A stretch of DNA of 64,000 nt, from assembly GCA_015039365.1 (NCBI GenBank), contig WION01000128.1, positions 62,001-126,000 on the forward strand. Direction: 5' to 3'. This DNA is from Amanita rubescens. Its lineage: Eukaryota; Basidiomycota; Agaricomycetes; Agaricales; Amanitaceae. The notes under the pieces are model-generated. The model worked only from the letters and a program-made list of their open reading frames with translations, did not search any database and was not told the DNA's origin. Shown one piece after another: positions 2,793-63,405 of this stretch. Positions within the stretch are counted from its first letter, which is position 1. Each line of letters opens with the position of its first letter. A program made the translations under genes and the position numbers.

Positions 2793-5700
2793 ATGGCAGC
2801 TACAACTGGTGCACCATCTTTGAGTAGGCTGATTTATGAGTCTCAGCATTGCTAATCCTTGACTAATGCATATCAGATGTAGATGAGGCACATGTTCAAA
2901 TACTCAGAGAACACTACCTATGCCCACACTTTCGTATCCTTGTCATCGGGAGGGCCAATGCAGGCAAAACAACCATCCTTGAGAAGGTTTGTGGTGTGGC
3001 AAAGGGGGCAAAGCCCATTATATATAACAAGGATGGTAAGTCAGTCTCAGTTTTGTGCTTCTTTTGACTGTTGAATTTCTTGCAGGCAATCAGCTTAAAC
3101 AGTCTGATATTCATTTGATGCCATCAATTGAGGTGAGTCAGATAATGATTTATGGCCCTGTCAGATGGATGTACCCATTCACATGCAATGATAACAGAGA
3201 GGCGAGCATGATATTGAGCATCAAATTACATACCCTGGAAGTAACTTTATCTTCCATGACTCTCGGGGTTTTGAATCTGGTTCAACTGAGGAATTGGAGA
3301 TTGCTTGGGAGTTCATTGAAAAGAAGTCTGCAGAAACTGAGCTAAAAAATCAGCTGCATGCAATCTGGTATTTTGCTTTATCCCTTTATAGTCTCTCTGA
3401 CTTGGCTTCCTATAGGTACTGTATACCCATGGACAGCCCTCGTCCTGTTTTACCTGCAGAACTTGAATTTTTTAATAAAGGGACAGGCAGAGGTAAGTCA
3501 TAATGAATTCACAAGTCATCTTATTGGTTTTGGAGAGATTGGTTCCCCTTAACTCCTTTCCATTGGCCAACTTGCCACAAATCTGATAGTACTGACTAAT
3601 AAATATTTCCTTTACAGTCCCCTTGGTGGTTGTATTCACTAAATTTGATGGTCAAATAGCCAGTGAATTTGTCAACTTGCCTGATGCAAAGGATGAAGTT
3701 AAGTGGGAGAGAGCCAGGGAAATTGCTGAAATCACTTTTCAGAAAGTTTATCTTCCTAAAGTTTTGAATGCCAAATATCCTCCCAAGGGATATGTGAAAT
3801 TGGAAGGTGAGAATGATGAGAGCTTCTCCCTAAAAATGGCAGTAATGTTGTCTCATAGACATGGATTTACCAGAAATGAATTGTGCTGAATTAACTCAGG
3901 AAACTGCTGATGCAATAGATGATAACAGCATGAATCAGCTGTTTGTTTCAACCCAGATGAATAATCTTGACCTTTGTGTTAAATCTGCACTTCGGTGAGG
4001 GCCACTTTCAAAAGTCACTTATGGACATAATTGACATTGTTCAGACATGCCTTGGACCATAAACAACATTGGACATGGAATGATATCATTGTCATAGTTT
4101 TTGCAAAATTTCCACATTTCTGGGTATGCATTTTTGTCAACTGCACTTCAGCATAGGAAAAATCAAATGCAAATAGGTGGACAGGGAGGTGGGTGCCTTC
4201 ATATGAAATAATAAATATTTGCAACAAGTTCATCAGGAGGTAAGCAACACTCCAATGCCTTTACATGAAAACAAAATTACTGATACTTCAGGTGGCCAAT
4301 AAACAACTGAGTGAAACACAGGTCAGGTGTCACCACATTCTTAGTGGCAAGACCTGATGTTATTTATATCAGTGGGTAAGTCACATTGAACTAACATAAA
4401 TCTGATATATTTTCTCATGACAACAGTTTGTAAGTAATGCTGTCTTTTGTGATCAGAGATCTTGTCTCATAATCTACAGGAAGTGAGTGACATGACTCAA
4501 TTCTGATTTTGGTAAATGATCCCATGCACATCATATGACCAATAGCGTGTAAGTTAATTTATCACTGAAAGCAGACTTGTTAATCCAGTCTCTCATGGAC
4601 AGGGAGTGAGTAACAAAATACTGCCTCACATCACATCTGACCTGCTTAAAGAAAGTAAGCAATGTTGACATTTCTGCAGTTTAGAGTCATAGATAACTGA
4701 ATGAACTATAGAAAGTTGGTGACATACTACTGTTATCTGAAAGAGAGTCTCAACAAGTTTCATAACAGGATGTAAGTGACATCTCCTTTCTATCTGCTTA
4801 TAAACATTACATCTTGCCTCAAATGACAGATAGTAAATATTTATAATTTTTCCCTTTCAAAGCCTCTTCATAAACTATTGCAAAATGAACAGGATGTATG
4901 TGATACTTTCATGACATGAAAATTCATCAGATGAACAACTATGGTAACAGAGAGTCTGTGGAATTGTCTTTTCCCCAACTCAATACACTAACTTGTCCAC
5001 CCTAAAAGGAAGTGAGTGATGCAGCATGCTCACCACTCTGGTGCAAGATAATTTGGACACATACAATTTAAACTTATTCTTTGTTATATAGATGGTGAGT
5101 TATATTGAACTTTCTGTGAAAAGCAGTGAAATCACAGCTTTTTCTATAAATAGCAGGTAAGCAGTATGTCATGTTGTTTTAGTAGTTCAAATGACCTTAT
5201 CAAAATGTTGCCTATGGTTAACAGCATGTGAGTAACATTGCAAATGATGCTGAAAAGCTGTCCTATCTATTTTTCCCATGACCAACAGGAAGTGAGTGAC
5301 TTTGGAGATTCTTGTGAAAGACATCTTTTCTGAACCATGACCAACAGAAAGTGAGTTACATTGCACATTTTGTGAAAGGCAGTGTCATCACATCTTTTCC
5401 TATGAACCATGATCAACAGCAAGTGAGTTACATTGCACATTTTGTGAAAGGCAGTGTCATCACATCTTTTCATATGACTAACAGAGAGTGAGTGACATTG
5501 CACATTTTGTGAAAGGCAGTGCCATCATATCTTTTCCTATGACCAACAGTTTGTGAGTGACATTGCACATTTTGTGCAAGGCAGTGTTATCATATCTTCT
5601 CCCATGACCAACAGGGAGTAAGTGACATTGCACATTTTGTGAAAGGCAGTGTCATCACATCTTTTCCTATGACCAACAGGGAGTGAGTGACACAAGTTGC

Positions 5701-8700
5701 ACATTTTGTGAAAGGCTGAGTGTCATCACATTTTTTCCTTTGACCAACAGCGTGTGAGTGACACTGCACATCTTGTGAAAGGCAGTGTCATGACATCTTT
5801 TCCTATGAACAACAGATTGTGAGTGACATTGCACATTTTGTGAAAGGCGGTGTCATCACACCTTTTCCTATAACCAACAGGCAGTGAGTGATGCTGCACA
5901 TTTTGTGAAAGGCAGTGTCATCACATTTTTCCTATGACCAACAGCTTGTGAGTGACACTGATTGCAAATTTATGAAAGGCAATGTCATCACATTGTTTCC
6001 TATGACCAACAGAGAGTGAGTGAAATTGTACATCTTGTGAAAGGCAGTGTTATCACATGTTTTGTTATCACATTTTTTCTATGACCAACAGGCAGTGAGT
6101 GACATTGTCCATTTTATGAAGGCGTTGTTGTCACATCTTTTCCTACTATGACCAACAGAAAGTCAGTGACATTGCCCACTGTATGAAGGCAGTGTTATCA
6201 CATCTTTCCCTATGACCAACAGCCAGTGAGTGACATTGCACATTTTGTGAAAGGCCTAAGTGTTCCTATGACCAACAGTTTGTAAGCAACATTGCTTATT
6301 TGTGAAAGGCAGCAACATCACATCTTTCCTATGACCAACAGGAAGTAAGTGACATTCCCAGCACATTTTGTGAAAGGCAGTGTCATCACATCTTTTCCTA
6401 TGACCAACAGGGAGTGAGTGACATTGCCCATTTATGAAGGCATTGTTGTCACATCTTTTCCTATGACCAACAGGATGTGAGTGACATTGCCCCATTTATG
6501 AAGGCATTGTTGTCACATCTTTTCCTATGACCAACAGGATGTGAGTGACATTGCACATTTGATGAAGGCAGTACGGTCATCACATCTTTTCCTATGACCA
6601 ACAGGGAGTGAGTGACATCACACATTTTGTGAAAGGCCTGTGTTCCTATGACCAACAGTTTGTAAGCAACATTGCTCATTTTGTGAAAGGAAGTGTCATC
6701 ACATCTTTTCCTATGACCAACAGCAAGTAAGTGACATTGCTCATTTTGTGAAAGGCAGTGTCATCACATCTTTTCCTATTTGGACCAACAGTTTGTGAGT
6801 GACATTACACATTTTGTGAAAGGCAGTGTCATCACATCTTTTCCTGTGACCAACAGGTTGTCAGTGACATTGCACATTTTGGGAAAAGCAGTGTTATAAC
6901 ATCATTTCACATCATTTTTTATGACCAACAGGTTGCAGTGAGCAACATTGCACATTTTGTGAAAGGCACTGTCATCACATCTTTCCTATGACCAACAGGG
7001 AGTAAGTGATATTGCACATTTTGTGAAAGGCAGTGTCATCACATCTTTCCTATGACCAACAGATTGTGAGTGAGATTTCACATTTTGTGAAAGGCAGTGT
7101 CATCACATCTTTTCCTATGACCAACAGGGAGTGAGTGATATTGCACATTTTATGAAAGGCAGTGTCATCACATTTTTTCCTATGACTGGCAACAGGGAGT
7201 GAGTGACTGTACATTTGTGAAAGGCATTGTTATCATATCTTTTCCAGCAGGTGAGTTACATACATTGCACATTTTGTGAAAGGCACTGTCATCACATCTT
7301 TTCCTATGACCAACAGGGAGTGAGTAATACTGCACATTTTGTGAAAGGTTTGAGTGTTATCACATCTTTTCCTATGACCATCAGGCAGTGAGTGACATTG
7401 CACATTTTGTGAAAGGCACTGTCATCACATGCTTTCCTATGACCAATAGATTGTGAGTGATATTGCACATTTTGTGAAACATAGTGTCATCACATCTTTC
7501 CTATCACCAACAGGGAGTGAGTGACATTGCACATTTTGTGAAAGGCAGTGTCATTACATCTTTTCCTATGACCAACAGGGAGTGAGTGACATCACACATT
7601 TTGTGTAAGGCAGTGTCATCACATTTTTCCCTATGAACAGGAAGTGAGTGACAGTACATTGCACATTTTGTGAAAGGCAGTGTCATCACATCTTTTCCTA
7701 TGACCAACAGCAAGTGAGTGACAATGCACATTTTGTGAAAGGTAGCATCTTCACATCTCTTCCTATGACCAATAGCAAGTGAGTGACATTGCAAATTTTG
7801 TGTCATTGTATCTTTTTCTATGACCAACAGGAAGTGAGTGACATTGCACATTTTGTGAAAGGCAGTGTCATCACATTTTTTCTTACAACCAACAGGAAGT
7901 GAGTGACATTGCACATTTTGTGAAAGGCCTGAGTGTCCACTGTCATCACATCTTTTCCTATGATCACCAGGGAGTGAGTGACATTGCAAATTTTGTGAAA
8001 GGCCTGAGTGTCATCACATCTTTTCCTATGACCAACAGAGAGTGAGTGACATTGCATATTTTGTGACAAGGCAGCATTATCACATCTTTTCCTGTGACTA
8101 ACAGGAAGTGAGTGACATTGCAAATTTTGTGAAAGGCCTGAGTGTCATCACATCTTTTCCTATCACCAACAGGGAGTGAGTGATATTGCACATTTTGTGA
8201 AAGACAGTGTCATCACATCTTTTCCTATGACCAACAGCTTGTGAGTGACATTGCACATTTTGTGAAAGGTTTGAGTGTTATCCTATCTTTTCCTATGACC
8301 AACAGGCAGTGAGTGACACTGGACATTTTGTGAAAGGCAGTGTCATCACATCTTTTCCTTTGACCACCAGAGAGTGAGTGAAATTGCAAATTTGTGAAAG
8401 GCAATGTCACCAAATTCTTTCCTATGGCCAACAGGCAGTGAGTGACATTGCCAATTTTGCAAAAGGCAGTGTCATCACATCTTTTCCTATGACCAACAGG
8501 AAGTGAGTGGCATTGCACATTTTGTAAAAGGCAGCAGTGTCATCACATCTTTTCCTATCACCAACAGCAAGTGAGTGACATTGCACATCTTGTGAAAAGC
8601 ATGTCATCACATCTTTTCCTATGATCAACAGGCAGTGAGTGACATTACACATTTTTGAAAGGCACTCAGTGTTATCACATCTTTTCCTATCACCAACAGG

Positions 8701-9441
8701 GAGTGAGTGACATTGCACAATTTATGAAAGGCAGTGTCATCACATCTTTTCCTATGATCAACAGGCTGTATGTGACATTGCAAATTTTCTAACCTGCATT
8801 CTCAGCATCCCATCATTCATGAATGTTTGATATACCATTAAATCCTACTAATGTCAGAAAGTGAGCATGTTGCCTTATCTTTTTCCTGTCTTCTTTTACA
8901 CTAAAGTTATTGTAGATTGTAAGATTACATTTCATCTCACCCACTCTCACTGCCAAGTGATGTGACCATTCCTCTCATTTAAATCACTTTCCTTGATTTC
9001 CAGGTGAGTGATTCTGGTTTATGAGGTACTATGTACTACTGAGATGTTTTACTCTATCTCATGATTAGCATGAGCTTTTCTCCATCTTTGGATACAAGCA
9101 ACAACAGAATTTTGCTTTCAAGGTCTTTCTGTTGTTTTTTTTGTGTAGTACACAACTGATCCTATTTCAACAAGCCTACTGATTTCCAAATCTTAGTTTG
9201 TAAATTACTCCTTTCACTTTTACTGGATTTATGCTTAAACTTTCAAGCAATTATTATCATTGCAAAGATATCATTTTGGATCAATAAACCACTTCTGCCA
9301 TCAATCATGGAGGCCTTGGATCAATACAAGCAAAAAGGCTATGTTCAGAAGCTGAAGACTGACATTACTCCTAACTTTATGGGCTCTGGTGTTCAAGATT
9401 TTGTCACATTACTCTATAGTCAAGTGACTCACATTGAGTAG
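2793..9441 (+). CDS. G-domain protein with long single-codon exon array (left copy)
   Basis: I can splice 85 exons by hand into 473 aa with no stop. Exons 1-11 are 2793-2823, 2877-3035, 3086-3132, 3198-3367, 3416-3492, 3618-3806, 3859-3994, 4045-4123, 4177-4188, 4237-4239 and 4292-4321. Then come 71 micro-exons from 4373 to 8918, and finally 9069-9122, 9175-9199 and 9248-9441. The N-terminal part is a GTPase-like domain: P-loop GRANAGKT (about 2958-2981), a DxxG-like HDSRG (about 3255), and TKFDG (about 3638), which fits the G4 NKxD motif. Exon 11 encodes VANKQLSETQ, and the array follows. After the array comes HELFSIFG..., then a hydrophobic segment (SIIIIAKISFWINKPLLP) and ...VTHIE-stop. 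The right homologue continues into a kinase where this copy stops, so this one is probably truncated. Start ATG 2793 is in good context and phases match the next exon. GTP binding is inferred from motifs; the function is unknown. Confidence 0.8.
4373..8918 (+). repeat. Tandem intron array with single-codon exons (left, 71 micro-exons)
   Basis: Each unit is an intron beginning GTGAGTGACATTGCACA and ending CCTATGACCAACAG, followed by exactly 3 nt before the next donor. Codons by first base: W4373 F4427 E4480 R4546 G4603 K4652 K4712 D4769 I4830 D4893 R4951 E5009 M5092 Q5154 H5225 E5289 K5348 Q5420 R5485 F5550 G5615 G5680 R5751 I5816 A5881 L5945 R6013 A6092 K6159 P6223 F6279 E6342 G6411 D6474 D6538 G6605 F6659 Q6724 F6792 V6857 V+A6932 (six bases) G6999 I7063 G7128 G7196 Q7248 G7317 A7385 I7450 G7514 G7579 E7641 Q7711 Q7776 E7831 E7896 G7971 R8039 E8105 G8173 L8238 A8306 R8371 A8435 E8500 Q8568 A8632 G8700 A8765 K8858 I8916. 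There is no stop among 72 codons. Introns before about 5289 and after 8765 are diverged; those between are near-identical copies of about 62 nt. A branch-site-like TGAC lies about ten bases before each acceptor. The phase is set by the flanking exons: VANKQLSETQ ends in phase 0 and HELFSIFG starts in phase 0. Confidence 0.88.
9004..9004 (+). promoter_or_regulatory. Possible zero-length exon (recursive splice site), left gene
   Basis: After the last single-codon exon (ATT at 8916) a strong acceptor, TTGATTTCCAG, is followed directly by a strong donor, GTGAGTGA. The next coding exon starts only at 9069. Any exon placed here with another acceptor meets a stop. The homologous right gene has the same acceptor-donor join at 51926/51927. 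The site fits recursive splicing (an intron removed in two steps with nothing left behind), or one undivided intron. Confidence 0.5.
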
Positions 9442-14700: not shown

Positions 14701-16793
14701 TGGCGGTTATACAAACCGAAAGTTCTATTCAATCTGTCGCCGTCTCTGCTGACGGCACGCGCATTGTCTCTGGCTCATACGACAACGGAGTGCAAGTGTG
14801 GGATGCCTCAACTGGGGCTGAACTGAGGGGGCTCAGGGACTCCCACCCCGCTTTTATCCGTTCCGTTGCCTCTTCTGCTGATGGCATGTACATCGTCTCT
14901 AGCTCGACCCACTCCTTGGAGGTGTGGGATGCCTCGACTGGGGCTAAGCTGAAGGCGCTCTATGGCCACACTGGGTCCATCTATTCCGCCACCTTCTCTG
15001 CTGATGGCACACGCGTCATCTCCGGCTCAGAAGACCGGTCTGTGCGGGTGTGGGATGCCTTGACTGGGGCTGAGCTGAAGGTTCTCAATGGCCACACCGG
15101 GACCGTCTATTCCGTCGCCTCCTCCGCTGATGGCAAACTCATCGTCTCTAGCTCAGACGACAAGTCTGTGCGGGTGTGGGATGCCTCGACTGGGGCAGAA
15201 CTGAAGTTACTCAATGGCCACACCGGGCCCATCTATTCCGTTGCCTTCTCTGCTGACAGTAAACACATTGCCTCTGGCTCACGTGGTGCCTCTGTGCGGG
15301 TGTGGGATGCCTTGACTGGAGCTGAGCTGAAGGTGCTCGAGGGCCACAATGGTGATGTTAATTCCGTCGCCTTCTCCGCTGATGGCACACGCATCATCTC
15401 TGGCTCAAGTGACCATTCTGTGCGGGTGTGGGATGCCCTGACTGGGGCTAAGCTAAAGGTGCTCAAGGGCCACACCAGGGTCGTCTATTCGGTTGCCTTC
15501 TCTGCTGATGGTACACGTATCTTCTCTGGCTCCGAAGACAGGTCCATGCGGGTGTGGGATGCATCGACTGGGGCTAAGCTGACGGTGCTCAATGGCCACG
15601 CCAGTATTGTCTATTCCGTCGCCTTCTCCGTTGATGGTAAATGTGTTGTCTCCGGCTCACACGACGACTCTGTGCGGGTGTGGGATGCCTTGACCGGAGC
15701 TGAGCTGAAGGTTCTCAATGGCCACAGCTGGACCGTCTATTCTGTCGCCTACTCCGCTGATGGCAAACTCATCGTCTCTGGCTCAAGAGACCAGTCTGTG
15801 CGGGTGTGGGATGCCTTGACTGGAGCTGAGCTGAAGGTGCTCAAGGGCCACACTGAGACCGTCTATTCCGTCGCCTTCTCTGCTGATGGCACACATATCG
15901 TCTCTGGCTCAGGTGACAAGTCTGTGCGGGTGTGGGATGCCTCGACTGGGGCCGAACTGAAGTTGCTCAATGGCCACACCGGGGCCATCTATTCCGTTGC
16001 CTTCTCTGCTGATGGTACGCGCATTGCCTCTGGCTCAGGTGACCGGTCTTTGAAGGTGTGGGATGCCTTGACTGGGGCTGAGCTGAAGGTGCTCAATGGC
16101 CACACCGATGATGTCAATTCTATTGCCTTCTCCACTGATGGCACACGCATCATCTCTGGCTCAGATGACAAGTCTGTGCGGGTGTGGGATGCCTCGACTG
16201 GGGCCAAACTGAAGTTGCTCAATGCTTATGCGACTGTCTCCTCCGTCGCCTTCTCTGCTGATGGCATGTACATTACCTCTGCATCCGCGGGTCGGTCTGT
16301 GCAGGTGTGGGATGCTTCAACTGGGGCTAAGCTGAAGGTACTCAATCATGGCCACATCGATAGAAACCCCTTCGCTCCTAACGGCGCCTCGGGTACCATC
16401 ACTTCCGTCGCCTTCTCTGCTGATGGTACACGCATCGTCTCCGGAGCATACGACGGGTCTGTGTGGGTGTGGGATGCCTCAACTGAGGTGCCAAACCTTC
16501 ACACAGATTCAGCCAATTCCATTACCTCCCCCGGGACTGACGGCACCTGCATTACCTTAGAGCCGGAAGAATCTGCACAGTCGTACATTGTAGGCCGCAC
16601 TTACCCTGCCTGGACTAGTGATACCAAAACAGGCTGGACCCATTCAGTTCATGGTGGTTATCGACTCATGTGGGTTCCAGAGCAGGCTTATCCATACAGC
16701 ATCATCATAATTTCCCGGAAAGCATCTGCCTATATCAACTTTCAAGGTTGCAAGATTGGTCGTGATTGGGCTGGTTGTTACATACCTAGCTAA
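11762..16793 (+). pseudogene. NACHT-WD40 (NLR-like) gene with several frame breaks
   Basis: This is a STAND-type signalling protein of the fungal NACHT-WD40 class, related to het-type incompatibility proteins. The first exon (11762-) and a helical N-terminal region are joined by short introns: GTGAGA near 11968, GTAAGC near 12484 and GTAAAC near 12788. The NACHT domain follows, with Walker A GQAGSGKTT (about 13015) and Walker B LIIVDALDEI (about 13340). WD40 repeats fill about 14700-16490, and the C-terminal tail is YRLMWVPEQ... to 16793. The conserved protein jumps frame four times: in a T6 run at about 13120, then near 13600, 13810 and 14085. No intron explains these jumps. The 947-codon frame covering the WD40 part is intact. 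Frame breaks concentrated in the NACHT domain suggest a pseudogene or an assembly problem. If it is dead, only the repeat part would be translated from internal starts. Confidence 0.8.
14700..16490 (+). repeat. Fourteen 126-bp WD40 repeats
   Basis: Fourteen tandem 42-residue WD repeats, each ending in VWDA(S/L)TGA(E/K)L. They are very similar at the DNA level except at a few positions, mainly within the SGSxDxSVRVW stretch. There the variable residues are ED-R, DD-K, RG-A, SD-H, HD-D, RD-Q, GD-K and so on. High identity with a few hypervariable surface positions is known for fungal NWD incompatibility proteins (het-d/het-e type), where repeats are reshuffled by recombination. Confidence 0.85.
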
Positions 16794-49918: not shown

Positions 49919-52900
49919 TCAAGCCAATGCCGCCGCAATGTCCTTTATCGTCGAGCGTTTAGAAGGAATGGACTCCCAACATCTCTGAATGAGATGCCAG
50001 GTATCGTCTTCCATTCTCGGACTTTCTAATCGATCCGGGCGCTTTCCATTTGTGACTAGTCGAAGAATTTGAATGTCGGTCTTGTCATGAAAAGGAACGG
50101 AACCAAAGAATGTCTGTTTAAGGTCTTGGATCAATGCACCAATCAAGCAAAAATCTATACACACTGCATAATAAAGGCAACCGAAAGCATAAACATCTGT
50201 TGCCATTGTTTTGCTTCTTTTCAGTAAAGCCTGATCTCTCTGACATCCATCACAGTCGAACAGACCACACGTGGTGCACATGCCAAAGAGTTCGGGTGCA
50301 ACAAAATTGATAGCAAATGCTGTTGTAGATCGTGTAACAATGGCTTCGAAATGTCGAGTTGATCCAAAATCAGTGATTTGGCAATGGAATTCAGAATTAA
50401 GGAGGACATTATGCTGGTAAATAATGTGATGAATGATTTGGGAGGCACAAAGATATTGGAATCCTTACCCCATGCAAGTCACCATGTACAATTCCTTCTG
50501 AGTGAAGATACTTCACACCTTCTGCTACCTCTAGCATCTATGTAGAAGATGTTAGCAAATTCATCACAAAGTACGTGCAGGAGTCCCACCACTCTGTGGA
50601 TCTCATTAATCTTGATTGGCTCCTGCTGAGTCTTTCTCCATCCAGTCAATGTCCCATTTGCCATGAATGGTGACACGAGAAAGAGCTGTGATCCCTCCTC
50701 AAATATCCCTAAGAGAGGAAGGATAAAATGGTGTGAGAGTGATTTCCATGTTAGAGCCTCCTGGCAAAAGTCTTTACTAAGTGAGTTCTTATTAAACTTT
50801 TCAGAATTGTTAAAAAATAAAAACTTAGAAAAGCACTAACATTGGTATGGCCCCTGTCCACCACTTTCAATGCTACTGGCAATCCTTTGTATGCACCCTT
50901 GAAAACACGCCCAAAGCCTCCAATACCAATCACTGTCATCTTGGCAGTTTTAACATCTGTCACAAAAAGAGATTTTGGTATGATATTTTTCTTGGACACC
51001 AGTTCAAGCATGAGCCTCCTAGCCTTTTGATTTTCACTCTGAATGTGTAATTTGTCATGGCAGAGTGACTAAAGGGAAAATATTGCACATAAACTAACAA
51101 AAGAGTGTATACATACATACATGGAGAATAAAATCAAGCAATGACTCAATGTTTAAGGTGCTCAGTTCAGATGCTGAGACAGAATATTCAGATAGATGCA
51201 ACAATTCACCCATAAAATCATGGGCAGATGTTTTAGCCATTGAACCACCACGTGCTGTTGACTAGTGGTTGTGAGTTAGACTCTGTGGTACACTGATGCT
51301 TGGGAAGTACAACTTGAATACCTTAAGGATGATTTCAAGCAATGCTTCCATGGGTGCATTGTCACCATTTTTTTCCTCCTGGTCCCAAGGCAAATGGAAA
51401 CTTGCTGTGCCATGAATTGTTCATATGTGGTGTATGAGTAGGTAAGGCACACACCATCAATGTTAGTCACCTGCTTGTAGAGGAATTGGACCAAATCTTG
51501 ATAACCAGAATGCACAAGAGTAGTAGGTGTAATGTCAGTCTTCAGCTTCTCAACAAAGCCTTTGTGCTTGAATTGATCCAAAGCTTCCGTGACTGATGGA
51601 AGAAATGGTTTGTTGATCCAAAATGATAACTTGGCAATGAAAATAATTGCTTGAGAGTTTCAGCATAAATAGAGCAAATGAAGTGGAAAGATTTACAAAC
51701 TAAAATTTGGCAAGAAGTAGGCTTATTGCAATAGTGTCAGTATTAAATTACAAGAAAAACAAACCATACATACATCAACTAAAAAGTTCTTTTGTTGACC
51801 TCCAAACATAGAAAGAAGTGCATGCTAATCATAAAAAAGAGTAAATCCTTCAATGTACCATCAGACATACACACTAGCATGTGGGCTGATATGAAATTTG
51901 ATGTTTCATAAGTCAGTTTCACTCACCTGAAAATCAAAGAAATCATGATGTAAGTCAGAGGACAATCATGTGAGGCCCTGGGATTGGGTAAGCTGATATA
52001 GAATCTTACAATCTATTGACAATGATAATGTAAGGCAAAGAAATAGAAAAGGTGAGACTATGTGCTCACTTCCTGATATAGTACAGTACATATGTAGGAC
52101 ATGATGAGACTACCTTTTGGAAGTGTTCACAAAATGCCACTCACTTTCTGTTGGTCATGGGAAAAGATGTGACACTGTTCCACAACAGTGTGTAATAATA
52201 TCACATACTCGCTGTTGTTCATAGGATAAGATGTGATCAGACTGTTTCACAACAATGCACAATGTTGCTCACTTGCTGTTGGTCATAGTAGGAAAAGATA
52301 GGATGAAACACCCTTTCACAAAAATATGCAATGTCACTCACAAGCTGTCAGTCATAGGAAAAGATGCAATGGGACTGCCTTTCTCAAAGTGTGCAATGTC
52401 ATCACTCACAAACTGTTCATCATAGGAAAAGATGTGATGAGACTGCATCTTATGAACTTATGTGCAATGTCACTCACTCGCTGTTGGTTATAGGAAAAGA
52501 TGTGATGAGACTGCATTTCAGAAATGTGGAATGTCACTCACCTGCTGTTGGTATAGGAAAAGATGTGATGAGACTGCCTTTCACAAAATGTGCAGTATAA
52601 CTCACTCCCTGTTTGTCACAGGAAAAGATATGATAGAGTGCCTTTCTCAAAATGAATGTCACTCACTCCCTGTCCATCAGAGACAAAAGATGTGATGAGA
52701 GTGCCTTTCACAAAATGTGCAATGTCACTCACAAACTGTTGGTCACAGGAAAGGATGTAGACTGCATTTCACAAAATGTGCAATGTCACTCACAGCCTGG
52801 GTCAGAGGAAAAGATGTGATAATGTGCCAACTGCCTTCCACCAAATGTGCAAACTCACAAACTGTAGGTCATAGGAAAAGATTCAATGAAACTGCCTCTC

Positions 52901-55900
52901 ACAAACTGTTGAGTCAATGTCACTCACAAGCTGTTGGTCATAGTTGGAAAAGATGTGATGAGACTGCCTGTCACAACATGTCCAATGTCACTCACAAGCT
53001 GTTGGTCATAGAAAAGATGTGATGAGACTGCCATTCACAACTTCATGCACTTGAATGTGTCCCTCACTTCCTGTTGGTCACAGGAATTGAAGATGCCATG
53101 AGACTGCCTTTCAAAAATGTGCAACTTGTCACTCACAAACTGTTTGTCAATGGTCATGGGAAAGGAAGTATGATAATGAGACTGTCTTCATAAAATGTGC
53201 AATGTCACTCACTGCTCCCTGTGGGTCATAGGAAAAGAAGTGATGAAACTGTCTTTTACAAAATGTATAATGTTACTCACAAACTGTTGGTCATAGGAAA
53301 AGATGTAATGAGACTGCCTTCCTCAACATGTGCAATGTCTAGCACTCACTCCCTGTTGGTCATACTAGGATGAGATTGCCTTTCATAAATTGTGCATTGA
53401 ATGTCACCCACTTCCTAGTGAAGTTATAGGAAAAGATGTGATGAGCCTGCCTTCCACAAGAATCTTCAATGTCACTCACATCCTATCAGTCATAGGGAAA
53501 ATATAGATAGAACAACTTTTCAGAAATGTTTGCAATGTAGTACTCACACACTGTTGGCAATAGGCAATAATTTTGATAACTGTCTTTTGAACCACTGAAC
53601 CAATGTGGCATGCTGCTAACCTTCTATGTTTGTTGTGATCCCACTGCATTCCACAAAACTTGCAATATCACTCACAATCTGTAAAACAAAGGAATGTGTC
53701 CAAATTGTCTTGAAGCAGAGTGGCCAGCACCACTCACTTCCTTTTAGAATGGAGTTACATATGTAGCATAACAAGTTGGAAAAAAAAAAGAATGTCACTG
53801 ACTCTCTTTTGCCATAGCATTTCATATTCATCATGGATTCACATCTCACAAAGTATCACATACATCCTGTTTGTTTTGCAATAGTTGGTCAAGCCTAGGC
53901 TTTGAAAATGAGAAATATTTACTGTCTATTATTTTAGGATAAGATGTAATGTTCATAAGGAGATAGAAATGAAATGCCACTTGCTTCCTGTTATTAATTG
54001 AATAAAATTTGTTGAAGCTCTCTTTCAGATAACAATATGTCACCAACTTTCTATTGTTCATTGAGTCATGTCTGATTCATAAACTTCAATGCTGCTTACT
54101 TTCTTTAAACAGGTCAGATGTGGTGTGCCAAGGCAGTGTTGTATCACTCACTCCCTATCCACAGGAAACTGAATTAACAAATCTGATCACCATAATAGAT
54201 CACTCACTTGCTGTTGGTTATATAATACACAATGGGATAATTTACCAAAAACTGCAATGAATTTGGATATCACTCACTTCCTGTATATTATGGAGCAAGA
54301 CTACTGATCACAAATGGAAGCATTACTCACAAACTATTGTCATGACAATATATCAGATCTAGTACATATGCAAGGTCAATTTCACTTACCCACTGATATC
54401 AATAGCACCAGATCCTGCCAATAATAATGTGGTGACAACTAACCTGTGTTTCACTCAGTTGTTTTTTGGCCATCTGAAGCATGACTAATCTTGGTTTCAT
54501 GTGAATGCAGTGGAGTGTTACTTACCTCCTGATGAACTTTTTGCAGTCATCCACATATCATTCCATATGAAGGCCACCTACCTCCCTGTCCACCTGTTGA
54601 CAGTTGATTTATCCTATGCTTATGTGCAGTTTGATGAAAGTGCATACCCAGAAATGTGGAAATTTTGAGAGAACTATGAGAACGACATCATCCCATGTCC
54701 AGTGTTTATGTTTCAGAACATGTCTGAACAATGTCAATGTTAGTAAATGACATTTTGAATGTGACCCTCACTGAAGTGCAGATTTAACTGAAAGATCCAG
54801 ATTATTCATCTGTGTTGAAACAAAAAGTTGATGTATAGTGGTATCATCAATTGCATCAGCAATTATCTGAGTTAATTCAGGGCAATTCTTCTTTGGCATA
54901 TCCATATCTATAAAGCAGGATTTCTTTTTCACTTTGGAGAAATAAATGTTCACCATTCTCACCTTCCAATCTCACATATAACTTGGGAGGATATTTGGTA
55001 TTCAAAACTTTAGGAAGATGAACTTTCTGAAAAGTGATTTCAGCAATTTCCTTGGCTCTCTCCCATTTATCTTCATCATTTAAGTCAGTCAAGTTGCCAA
55101 ATTCCCAGATTATTTGACCATCAAATTTGGTGAACATAACCACCAATGGAACTGTGAACGAAATATTTACTAGTCAGTGTGCTGTAGATTACTATTAGTA
55201 GATCCTGTGGCAATTTGGCAATTTGGTCAATGGAAAGGCAGTAACAATGAATAATCTCTCCAAAACCAACAAGATGAGATATGAAATCAGCAGGACTTAC
55301 CTCTGCCTGTCCCTTTATTGAAGCATTCAAGGTCTGAATGTAGAATGGAACGAGGGTCATCCATGGGTATACAGTACCTAGAGGCTTGATCAGCCTTCAG
55401 TAATGTAAAGGAATAACACAAAGTACCAAATTGCATGCAGCCGATTCTTCAGCTCAGTTTCTGCAGACCTCCTTTCAATGAACTTCCAGATAATTTCCAA
55501 TCCCTCAGTTGAACCAGATGCATGGAAGATGAAGTTACTCCCAGGGTATGTAATCTCTTGTTCAATAGCATATGCTCCCTGTTATTATTACATGTGAATG
55601 GGGGTACATGCATACATCCTTATCTGACTCACCCGACTGCCAGTGTCAGGCAATGTACTACCATCCTTCTCATATATGATGGGCCTTGTCCCTGTTGCTA
55701 GTACACCACAAACCTTCTCCATGATAGTTGTCCTTCCTGAATTGGCCCTTCCAATGATAAGGATGCGAAAGTGCAGGCATAGGTATTGCTCCCTGAGAAA
55801 TTTAATATGTGTCTCCTCTGTATCTGGTTGTATCTGTCAGATAATCAGATAATGTGAAGATATCATATTGGTTTACTTGATGGAAGTGCACTATCTGCAA

Positions 55901-60863: not shown

Positions 60864-63405
60864 CTATTTTGCCCCGAACACCTCCGCTTCTGATAGCGCA
60901 AGAATGTACTGATCAGTCTTCCCATACCAAAGTGTTTGTGCACCCTTCTTTGCGCCCTCAATTGTCTGCTTTGCAAAAGGCACCCCCAACGTGTCCGGGA
61001 CAACAAAAAGAATGATCATTTTTCTTTTTGTTGTTGGTCGAAGATCTTTCATCCCAGAGACTTTAGGCTTGAGTGACGTTTGAACATCCTCCAAACCTTT
61101 AAGCTTTATAGGATGGTCGGCAGCTGTAGTTGCCTGCAAAGCGACAAGAGGCGAGAATTGGGAAATATCGGGTTGATACAGGAAAGAGTCGAAAGGTGGA
61201 AAGACAGGAGAGAGCGGCTGGAGGTAGCATGATGTTTTATTCTGGACGGACAATGCTAATTCGCCTGTGAAACATTTCATGTCTCCGAATTGTTTTGTGT
61301 TGGGAGTGAAGCGAATGTTATGAGTAGTGGAGCGTTTATCGAGAGACTGAATAGTAAAGGTCCGGGAAGAAGTTTTCAGGAATTTGTGAAGGTGACATTC
61401 AAATGTCTTTCCAACGAGTGTAGCAGATTCACGGCACGCTTTGATGGCACAGTAAAAATCGTATGCAGAACCCACCCTTCGTTGGTCCAGGACAACCATC
61501 ATCTCCGAGAAAGCCCAGTCCGAAACTGGTTCCACGGCACACTTGTTCCACAACCGATGCTTGGACAATGGGCGTATTTGGAATACGCGATGGATCACTG
61601 TGCCACCATCCACCGTCATCGTGATGATAGTATCAGACAACTCCTTGGTCTGCTCAATCGCTTTCCTGATCTTCGCTTTGGTATCGTCAAGAGCACGAGA
61701 GGATACTGCCGCTGCGAAACATTCACGAGGTATGTTCCCGCAAATACGGGAAGCTTCCTGAAGTCGCTTGAGAGTGATGTCGTTGCTTTGCAGGAACAAC
61801 CTATAAATCATAAGCAGGCGAATTAATCAAGCAGAATGCACGAACGATGCAACAACAAGTTCTTCTCGCGACCATGGCTCCATCATAAACATCGCATGCT
61901 GATCGTTAACTCTTTGGGTAAGCCACCGTCGGTCTTTCCTCTTTTTTGGCGAAGACGTTAGCAGTATGCGATATTCGTCATGACAAAAGAGATATTCATT
62001 AGGTTGATAGACTTTATCGTCGGCATCGACGAGTGCAAGAACGTCGTCGGCGTCGGCCGATACTCCCGGTGCCATGCCCTCTGGGAGCACCGTATTACCA
62101 ATAATGAAGACCTTGCCAGACACATCCTGAAACACGATTGGCTGGGCAAGAATGATGCAAAGAATGAGGATGGAATACAACATGCATGTTTTCCCTGGTT
62201 TGTTGGTTGGAAGTGGCAGTCAGATACCAATAATGGTGCTCACCGATACCCGGCTGACCTGAGAAGAGGGCACTTCCATTCTTGCCCTTTTTCCTCTTGT
62301 TAAAGATGTCTATCATGGTATTCCACTCGTTTCGGAAGAGCATCAACCGTGGCACGCGAAGCTTCTTCTTCGACTGGAGGACAGTCAGGTCCACATACCG
62401 AATGGTGTAGGGGAAAATCCCCGTGGCTTCGTTTGGAAGATGAGTGTCGCCTGAGCAGTGGTCGGAATCAATGACCATGGCAGCGTCGTCGTCGTCGTCG
62501 TCTACAATATCGTCGTCCACAACATCATCGTCCACAACATCGCAGTCTACAACATCGTCATCCACAACGTCGTCGTCGAGGACATTATCAGATGGGGGCT
62601 GGGAGGCATCTAAACGGGGGACTAGGCCATCACCAAGGTCTAGGTCAAGACCAGTGCTCCTCTCGCGTAAGAATGCGGATTTCGTGGCAAGAACATCCTC
62701 CGCCTCATATTCATCAGAGTTGCGTTTCGGATTCAGTGCGTCCAGGTGACATTGAAGTTCGGTGAAGTCACCTTTGGTCAGGGTTGCGGTACGAAAAATC
62801 TTGCCAAAAAAATCACGCTTTCCCCACAGTTCATTATGAATTTCAACCAGCCAGGATGGTCCTAATAAGATGAGAGCATTGCGAACGGAGTTTTGATTAA
62901 TGATGGACAAATGACACGACAGCGATGGGCTCACCTGTGGAGGGAAGGCGCACCAGAACATGGACATGGTTGTCGAGAGGGTCCCGGTCCGGAAAGAGCG
63001 CCGACATGGTTTGTGTAGCGGGCAACCGCTTTGCGAACGTCGCCACATCGCCTCTCGACCTAATACGCTGCGTGAGGGTATCTTCTGGATCCACAGGTTC
63101 TGGATCATTTAGCTGGCAAGATAGAGTCAGTCAGCTGTTTGCGTTAGCCTGTAGAATGCCCTCGCCATCCAAAGTACTAGAGTGGAGGCATTAATACCAG
63201 GAAGATATGTTTCCGCCTTTATAGCCTTCTTCAAAAAGTCGACCTTGACGTCGCGATGTACGGATACCTGAAATGGAGGACCGTCGCCAACAAGACACCA
63301 AAGTGTAATGAAATCCGGCATCAAGGACGGTGGAAGTACGACGTGGTGGTAAGGATAGAGCGAATCGGAAGGAGTAAATGATCTGTTGGATTGGAAGTCA
63401 CTCAT
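60864..63405 (-). CDS. Crinkler (CRN)-like protein: ubiquitin-like header, P-loop NTPase, nuclease-like C-terminus
   Basis: Crinklers occur in oomycetes and some fungi; several act in the host nucleus. Exon 1 (63405 to about 63166) holds the ubiquitin-like header FITLWCLVGDGPPFQVSV and STLVLW. Exon 2 (63112-62935) reads LNDPEPVDPED and ends HVHVLVRLPSTG. Exon 3 (62861-62244) has WLVEIHNELWGKRDFFGKIF, an acidic Asp/Val repeat (about 62490-62590), and the P-loop start LFSGQPGIG. Exon 4 (62194-61846) completes it as GKT and carries Walker-B-like NEYLFCHDEYRILLTS. Exon 5 (61800-60864) holds the C-terminal domain with FPPFDSFLYQ, as in the REase-like nuclease part of fungal CRNs. The intron after exon 1 most simply uses a GC donor, which keeps the LW motif. 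No signal peptide is visible. The exact action is unknown. Confidence 0.75.
62488..62590 (-). repeat. 15-bp tandem repeat coding an Asp/Val tract
   Basis: Units of about 15 bases (ACAACATCGTCGTCC-like on the plus strand) repeat about six times inside the Crinkler gene. They encode alternating Asp-Asp-Asp-Val-Val. The number of units is likely to vary between strains. Confidence 0.7.

What the first reader, a model, noticed from the sequence alone, without database searches (positions are those of the whole stretch)
4373..8918. Seventy-one consecutive exons of one codon each, separated by tandem introns
Seen directly: every acceptor (mostly CCAACAG) is followed by exactly three bases (once six) and then a donor (mostly GTGAGT), 71 times in a row. 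Flanking exons fix the phase, so each triplet is a whole codon; none of the 72 is a stop. The total model stays in frame over 85 exons. A plain minisatellite would not keep the spacer at 3 or 6 bases nor avoid stops. I know of no established gene built this way, but I could not check the literature.
Basis: partly seen in the sequence, partly recalled or inferred. Interest (0 to 1): 0.97.

Follow-up and report, generated by a model that had tools for sequence, protein, structure and literature searches.

The report
Gene arrays of one-codon exons
In a mushroom genome (likely Amanita rubescens, the blusher) a gene keeps one open reading frame across 71 consecutive tiny exons, 70 of one codon and one of two; intronless relatives of both ends of such arrays suggest that they are really spliced, and because the codons in the middle of the arrays vary far more than the repeated introns between them, the arrays likely encode a hypervariable protein segment.

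Summary
A splice-site chain allowing exons of 0-9 nt finds 71 consecutive microexons in window 4373-8918 (70 of 3 nt, one of 6). The whole gene (2793-9441) assembles into 85 exons, 84 GT-AG introns and one 473-aa frame. In 18 non-duplicate arrays none of 1093 codons is a stop (68-90 expected). Synonymous codons avoid internal GT and initial AG. Unnamed intronless JGI proteins continue a GTPase domain straight into the peptide that the arrays spell one codon per exon (P0002, P0022), or join an array's 3' end to the downstream exons (P0124); their nearest genes here are only about 90% identical. Middle codons are 36-70% divergent per base while introns are 1.4-19% divergent; the first codons show the opposite. 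Best reading: spliced single-codon exons encoding a hypervariable insert in a GTPase (sometimes GTPase-kinase) family. No comparable gene surfaced in ten paper searches. How identical introns come to flank different codons is open.

The parts
2793..4321 (+). Gene A, exons 1-11 (ATG at 2793): GTPase-like domain with P-loop GRANAGKT; includes one upstream 3-nt exon GAG 4237-4239 and the 30-nt exon 4292-4321
   Evidence: Exons 2793-2823, 2877-3035, 3086-3132, 3198-3367, 3416-3492, 3618-3806, 3859-3994, 4045-4123, 4177-4188, 4237-4239, 4292-4321; one open frame
4373..8918 (+). Array A: 71 consecutive microexons (70 x 3 nt, 1 x 6 nt = 72 codons) separated by GT-AG introns
   Evidence: Length-unbiased splice chain, whole-gene assembly
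5409..8788 (+). Repeated core of array A: unit of about 65 nt, 51.5 copies (about 62-nt intron plus codon)
   Evidence: Tandem Repeats Finder
9003..9004 (+). Zero-length exon candidate CAG|GTGAGTGA inside the intron after the array (AG|GT site; possible recursive splice site)
   Evidence: A zero-length exon at this place of the chain in 14 of 18 non-duplicate arrays
9069..9441 (+). Gene A, last three exons 9069-9122, 9175-9199, 9248-9441 (TAG); C-terminal region, no kinase
   Evidence: Open frame; protein order HELFSIFG..PTDFQILVS..IIIIAKISFW matches JGI protein P0124
54648..55792 (-). Gene B, GTPase-domain exons found (55792-55662 or longer, 55578-55427, 55377-55301, 55151-54963, 54907-54772, 54723-54648)
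   Evidence: Exons located and translated; two ends adjusted by eye
52010..54392 (-). Gene B, array of 38 microexons from TGG to ATT (37 x 3 nt, 1 x 6 nt)
   Evidence: Splice chain on the sequence; counted by eye from the chain
49919..50960 (-). Gene B, protein kinase exons downstream of the array
   Evidence: Joined kinase exons match PF07714 at 5.4e-40; boundaries read by eye

Best explanation
The array lies inside a GTPase-type gene whose reading frame stays open when all 71 microexons are joined, and it is likely spliced in full, adding a 72-residue segment between the GTPase domain and a C-terminal region predicted to be helical. Shown here: the gene family, the 3-nt spacing, the open frame, the absence of stops, the splice-aware codon choice, the opposite behaviour of codons and introns, and intronless relatives covering both array ends. 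Inferred: each roughly 62-nt intron is recognised on its own, and because the 3' site of one intron and the 5' site of the next are 3 nt apart they can hardly be occupied together, so introns would be removed one after the other or in alternating rounds. Inferred: since every unit is one intron plus one codon, gain, loss or exchange of units by recombination in the repeated introns never breaks the frame, so the segment can change length and sequence one amino acid at a time. Inferred and untested: the segment forms the variable tip or linker between two helices of an IRG/dynamin-like GTPase and serves as a variable contact surface, perhaps in nonself recognition or signalling, in some members coupled to a kinase domain.
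For: 3-nt rule: 1210 exact units with 3-nt spacer against 3+13 with 1 and 2 nt, 6 with 4 and none with 5, 12 with 6. Stops: 0 of 1093 codons in 18 arrays, 68 expected from base frequencies, 90 given second-third base pairs; TAA/TGA in 1 of the 1210 exact units (TAG not counted). Codon choice: GGA:GGT 95:2 in arrays, 47:93 in flanking exons (p 2e-27); CGA:CGT 91:4 vs 8:14 (p 2e-9); Arg AGR:CGN 19:96 vs 161:45 (p 9e-28). Selection on codons: over the first 13 array positions of 12 arrays, codon divergence 0.095 against intron 0.154, five positions invariant. Transcript-like relatives: P0002 ..LSETK WFEKGKKESDREIEYDGG.., P0022 ..LSEAQ WFEHGKKDTDKQIVYDGE.. match WFEQGKKETDREIKYDG spelled one codon per exon; P0124 ..LKIC DELFSMFG..PTDCQVLVSIIIIAKLSFW.. 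matches the array end CTT AAA ATT (zero) TGT and the three downstream exons. P0058 and P0062 are near-identical in the GTPase domain and C-terminal part and differ at the array position. The model of P0044 puts that position in a low-confidence stretch (338-360) between two confident helices.
Against: No RNA or protein shown to come from this gene or this genome: the nearest own exons to P0002, P0044 and P0124 are 90, 91 and 92% identical. No transcript was matched to the variable middle of a known genomic array. That the JGI contigs are RNA-derived is inferred from their lack of introns; relatives that never had these introns are not formally excluded. Some arrays break the rule: C749 holds 16 of the 22 spacers of 1, 2 or 4 nt, C13 four, and L039/L050 are not clearly in frame. 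NCA codons, which make a CAG at the exon end, are not avoided (41 NCA, 36 NCT). Gene A lacks the kinase that gene B has. The GTPase part of gene B matches no Pfam family at E 0.001 and P0001 reaches PF01926 only below its cut-off. Helical periodicity of the peptides is weak (3 of 18 arrays below 0.05, combined p 0.015). Function is inferred from architecture alone.
Confidence: 0.85

Rival explanations
1. The array is a minisatellite inside one giant intron: 4322-9068 is removed as a whole and the triplets mean nothing.
For: The unit is a typical 65-bp tandem repeat; leaving out all units keeps the frame because each is a multiple of 3.
Against: No stops in 1093 codons; spacer length 3 or 6 in 1222 of 1244 exact units; synonymous choice avoiding GT and AG; conserved first codons in diverged introns; intronless relatives contain the conserved array peptide.
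Confidence: 0.05
2. Neutral ratchet: units are spliced as single codons, but the array grows by tandem duplication and its codons drift, held only to no stop, splice accuracy and harmlessness; the segment has no specific function.
For: Adjacent identical codons are in excess (115 vs 82.8 +- 8.1 shuffled), a sign of unit duplication; six allele-like pairs show no faster codon change (1/883 codon sites, 29/17961 intron sites); peptides differ freely between arrays.
Against: In the three arrays with introns 1.4-2.6% divergent the codon bases are 36-66% divergent, 25-32 times more; L039 vs L050: 61/154 microexon sites differ, 24/3294 intron sites, in the best-scoring register. Drift alone should change both alike. 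The first codons are conserved.
Confidence: 0.28
3. Intron copying: identical introns are pasted or converted between codons (introner-like insertion, or RNA-templated conversion limited to the intron), so codons are old while introns are constantly renewed.
For: Unit pairs with identical introns share their codon in only 395 of 1871 cases (21%), against 1075 of 10871 (10%) for pairs more than 5 changes apart; within L049 145 of 835 and 4 of 29. In the unit listing of L039 and L050 the differences stop at the splice sites.
Against: Random insertion would not give one intron per codon, always phase 0. In the pair L039/L050 the array codons differ although the upstream gene is 98.4% identical, so the codons there are not simply old.
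Confidence: 0.2
4. Dead repeats: the arrays are pseudogene debris or assembly error.
For: C749 and C13 arrays carry spacers of 1, 2 and 4 nt; gene A lacks the kinase.
Against: Gene A is one intact 473-aa frame over 85 exons; its near-identical copy on contig C437 has no change in 207 microexon bases; 17 of 17 fetched loci show the structure.
Confidence: 0.04

Closest known systems
Schistosome micro-exon genes (MEG)
   Same: Many tiny exons interspersed with introns; a family of variable proteins (abstract of PMC10526429: exons of 3-81 bp, introns up to 5 kb)
   Different: There exon sizes vary and introns are long; here 70 of 71 are exactly one codon, introns are repeated copies of about 62 nt and the rest of the gene is an ordinary GTPase-type gene
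Aphid bicycle genes
   Same: Fast-evolving family recognised by many small internal exons of one phase (passages of PMC9168663)
   Different: Phase 2 exons of mixed small size; introns not described as repeated copies, and no one-codon exons, in the passages read
1-nt and 3-nt microexons of animals and plants
   Same: Exons of 1-3 nt can be spliced (1-nt exons of APC11 and VPS55 in plants; passages of PMC8831610)
   Different: Isolated exons in the passages read, not arrays of tens
Introner-like elements of fungi
   Same: Introns that multiply in many copies (PMC4457414, start of abstract in the listing)
   Different: As recalled, dispersed single introns, not tandem arrays with one codon between copies
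Fungal NOD-like receptors with repeat domains (recalled; PMC4986451 seen only as start of abstract in the listings)
   Same: Large families, fast-changing repeated segment, possible nonself recognition
   Different: There the repeat unit is coding; here the repeat is intron and the information sits in the one-codon spacers
Immunity-related GTPases (Irga6, IRGB10)
   Same: Best structural matches of the predicted GTPase plus helical architecture of P0044

Membership tests
Spliceosomal (GT-AG) intron-exon gene | All introns GT-AG, frame open after removal | tested here: met
   84 of 84 introns GT-AG, one frame of 473 codons
Spliceosomal (GT-AG) intron-exon gene | Spliced RNA from this locus | not testable with these tools
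   Only intronless relatives P0002, P0022, P0124
Micro-exon genes (MEG) | Symmetric tiny exons (multiples of 3; recalled definition) | tested here: met
   71 of 71 in array A
Micro-exon genes (MEG) | Most of the coding region in microexons (recalled definition) | tested here: not met
   72 of 473 codons lie in the array
Micro-exon genes (MEG) | Secreted product | not tested
   No signal-peptide test was run; the family is a fungal GTPase/kinase one
Introner-like elements | Near-identical introns inserted in unrelated genes | tested here: inconclusive
   2110 unit matches in the assembly, 0 for the reversed pattern, only the first places listed; the 17 loci fetched have family exons in or next to them
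Plain minisatellite | No reading-frame constraint on the unit | tested here: not met
   0 stops of 1093, spacer 3 or 6 nt in 1222 of 1244 exact units
Recursive splicing site | Conserved AG|GT zero-length exon in an intron | tested here: met
   14 of 18 arrays in the splice chain
Recursive splicing site | Use of the site in RNA | not testable with these tools
   No reads
IRG / dynamin-like GTPases | GTPase domain followed by helical domain of that fold | tested here: inconclusive
Protein kinase (gene B only) | Kinase domain PF07714 | tested here: met
   5.4e-40; a TKL label would rest on recall and on PMC2838846 about Laccaria and was not tested

The most novel reading that the evidence does not exclude
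These arrays are a write-and-shuffle device for peptides at single-codon resolution: a repeated intron serves as a uniform recombination and splicing spacer, codons between copies are replaced or rewritten in bursts independently of the introns, and a large family of GTPase and GTPase-kinase genes thereby makes endlessly variable recognition segments (with, in principle, any subset of codons skippable by alternative splicing without losing frame).
Probability: 0.22. Interest if true: 0.98.

Novelty: categorically new. Interest (0 to 1): 0.95.

Why it matters
If transcripts confirm it, this is a gene in which tens of successive codons each form their own exon, about 4.5 kb of DNA for 72 amino acids, in a family with some 150 GTPase-exon matches in one assembly (likely haplotype copies included; arrays themselves read in 18 non-duplicate cases). 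It would test how a spliceosome handles 3' and 5' splice sites three bases apart dozens of times in a row, show how a family can vary a protein segment one residue at a time without frameshifts, and may explain why the predicted Amanita proteins read here lack the conserved array peptide. The codon-intron decoupling (identical introns, different codons) also gives a direct handle on how spliceosomal introns are copied and homogenised.

Tried and rejected
Considered and rejected: giant intron/minisatellite without coding meaning (stops, spacer length, codon choice, relatives). Considered and weakened: ongoing hypermutation of codons, because six allele-like pairs show 1 change in 883 codon sites and 29 in 17961 intron sites. 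A single acceptor-avoidance rule for third bases fails for NCA codons. Coiled-coil coding in all arrays: only L033, L036 and L050 of 18 show helical periodicity at p below 0.05. Contiguous genomic copy of the array peptide: no candidates in the assembly, but without a positive control for such short queries this shows little. A third protein search with 13 predicted spliced segments found 5 proteins, one of them (P0124) informative. Lengths of 1, 2, 4, 5, 7, 8 and 9 (46 of 1153) are partly such parsing errors, partly the C13/C254-type arrays. L037 and L055 were left out of the 18; L040 and L051-L054 were left out as near-duplicates. The L039/L050 comparison uses the best-scoring of several possible registers, because units are near-identical; downstream of the array the C254 stretch L057 gave no match over 150 nt to L039, so whether the two are alleles or recent duplicates is open. 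The pairing of GTPase and last exons used 114 of the 150 rows and all 103 rows. Ten paper searches returned no description, in their listings, of arrays of one-codon exons; the library holds open-licence papers only. What I saw of papers: passages of PMC2838846, PMC8831610, PMC11121469, PMC10526429 (81, one abstract passage) and PMC9168663; all others as search listings. [quoted passage not shown]
Full report
WHAT IS THERE. The window is contig C33:62001-126000 of an assembly of 75.7 Mb in 786 contigs. Protein hits named Amanita rubescens lie on contigs whose lengths equal those of this assembly (1667397 = C1, 736667 = C46, 134765 = C41, 123375 = C56), so the source is very likely A. rubescens. 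On the plus strand a gene runs from ATG 2793 to TAG 9441. I joined it from 85 exons: 84 introns, all GT-AG, 46-150 nt (mean 62), one frame of 473 codons. Exons 1-11 encode a GTPase-like domain with P-loop GRANAGKT; 71 microexons follow at 4373-8918; three exons (9069-9122, 9175-9199, 9248-9441) close the gene.

THE OBSERVATION, CHECKED WITHOUT ASSUMING IT. I scored introns by donor, acceptor and a branch-like motif and chained them with any exon length from 0 to 9 allowed. The window array came out as 70 exons of 3 nt and one of 6. Eight loci with shuffled bases gave chains of 3-7 introns and no peak at 3. All 17 loci fetched because they match the unit show the same structure (one is a contig-end fragment). 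In 18 non-duplicate arrays 1069 of 1153 chained microexons are 3 nt and 12 are 6 nt; the 26 zero-length ones are partly a parsing artefact and partly a conserved AG|GT site after the array.

GENOME-WIDE TEST OF THE SPACER. A 35-base unit pattern has 2110 places at up to 3 mismatches, its reversed control none. Exact matches to CANCAG-N(k)-GTGAGTGACATTG in the whole assembly: k=3 1210, k=1 3 and k=2 13, k=4 6, k=5 none, k=6 12. Thus 1222 of 1244 are 3 or 6; of the 22 others 16 sit in one array on C749 and 4 on C13, with one each on C254 and C599. These look like arrays that have slipped the rule and show that the spacer can change when nothing holds it (inference).

THE TRIPLETS BEHAVE AS CODONS. 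Of 1093 codons in the 18 arrays none is a stop; 68 are expected from base frequencies and 90 if second and third bases are kept together. Of the 1210 exact units one holds TAA or TGA (TAG was not counted). Synonymous choice differs from that in flanking exons of the same genes in the direction that protects splice sites: GGA:GGT 95:2 against 47:93, CGA:CGT 91:4 against 8:14, AGR:CGN 19:96 against 161:45. A codon with GT inside would offer a second donor and a codon beginning with AG a second acceptor. This does not explain everything: NCA codons, which make CAG with the following G, are not avoided (41 NCA to 36 NCT).

TWO OPPOSITE REGIMES. Over the first 13 positions of 12 arrays codons diverge less than introns (0.095 vs 0.154), with TGG, TTT, AAA, AAA and GAA invariant at positions 1, 2, 6, 7 and 12. 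In the middle the reverse holds: codon bases diverge by 0.36-0.70 in every array measured, introns by 0.014-0.19 (two loci with fewer than six core units left out, near-duplicates included). The young arrays L039, L049 and L050 have ratios of 25-32, the others 3.4-7.2. One search shows dozens of L039 units with identical 62-nt introns and codons CAA, CTA, CGA or CTT. L039 and L050, whose upstream DNA is 98.4% identical over 2.5 kb, differ at 61 of 154 microexon sites and 24 of 3294 intron sites in the best-scoring register. Pairs of units with identical introns share the codon in 395 of 1871 cases, pairs more than five changes apart in 1075 of 10871: codon and intron histories are only weakly linked. 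Against a constant codon mutator stand six allele-like pairs with 1 change in 883 codon sites, 29 in 17961 intron sites and 47 in 8545 sites outside. Adjacent equal codons are somewhat in excess (115 vs 82.8 +- 8.1), so unit duplication contributes.

EVIDENCE OF SPLICING. A search with the GTPase part of gene B returned JGI proteins on short contigs whose ORFs run through GTPase-domain sequence without the introns that interrupt genes A and B. P0002 (386 aa, contig 1446 nt) continues LSETK-WFEKGKKESDREIEYDGG and P0022 (311 aa, contig 1903 nt, starting after the P-loop) LSEAQ-WFEHGKKDTDKQIVYDGE; a search restricted to that part found only these two among 32 candidates. The arrays spell WFEQGKKETDREIKYDG with one codon per exon. 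P0124 (156 aa) joins an array-like variable stretch to LKIC-DELFSMFG...PTDCQVLVS-IIIIAKLSFWINKP, that is the array end CTT AAA ATT (zero) TGT and the three downstream exons as in gene A. P0058 and P0062 are nearly identical in the GTPase domain and the C-terminal part and differ between them. The nearest exons of this assembly are 90% (P0002), 91% (P0044) and 92% (P0124) identical, so these come from relatives or unassembled copies. That they are RNA-derived is inferred from their lack of introns; even a retrocopy would have come from spliced RNA.

HOW IT LIKELY WORKS. Ordinary spliceosomal removal of each short intron, in sequence or alternating rounds, would deliver a segment of some 40-90 residues. 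Because the repeated part is intron and the unit adds one codon, recombination inside introns is frame-safe, which permits rapid change of a segment flanked by a conserved start. The role as a variable contact surface is inference from family size, variability and architecture. How introns stay identical while neighbouring codons differ remains open between strong selection after amplification, intron-limited conversion or copying, and burst rewriting.

COMPARISON AND NOVELTY. Micro-exon genes of schistosomes and aphid bicycle genes are nearest in spirit, single 1-3-nt microexons nearest in size, introner-like elements nearest in intron identity; as far as seen none combines these. Ten paper searches (listed under Tried and rejected) gave no match in their listings; subscription papers were not searchable.

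Noticed in passing
window 14736-16346: Tandem array of about 126 bp (12.8 copies, 77% matches) whose consensus reads as a WD40-like repeat (VAFSADGTRIVSGSDDQSVRVWD..), as in repeat-bearing fungal NLR-type genes (recalled); it lies a few kb from gene A.
   Followed up: no
window 9003-9004 and the matching site in 14 of 18 arrays: A conserved CAG|GTGAGTGA inside the intron after the array behaves as a zero-length exon, a possible recursive splice site.
   Followed up: partly
G000 contig C749 (2068-4150): One array with many spacers of 1, 2 and 4 nt, a possible decayed array and natural control.
   Followed up: partly
L039 (C13) and L050 (C254): Recent gene copies with nearly identical introns but different codons; both carry a few 2- or 4-nt spacers, so their frames are doubtful.
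   Followed up: partly
window gene A 9248-9441: Gene A ends with TAG shortly after the array and lacks the kinase domain of gene B.
   Followed up: partly
window gene B, first exon found (55792-55662): The P-loop reads GRANSGRT, with Arg in place of the usual Lys; GTP binding may be changed.
   Followed up: no
G000 C456 and C97: GTPase exon and last exon are about 13.5-13.9 kb apart, over three times the median; insertion or very long array not examined.
   Followed up: no
window 62495-62577: 15-bp tandem repeat, 5.5 copies.
   Followed up: no
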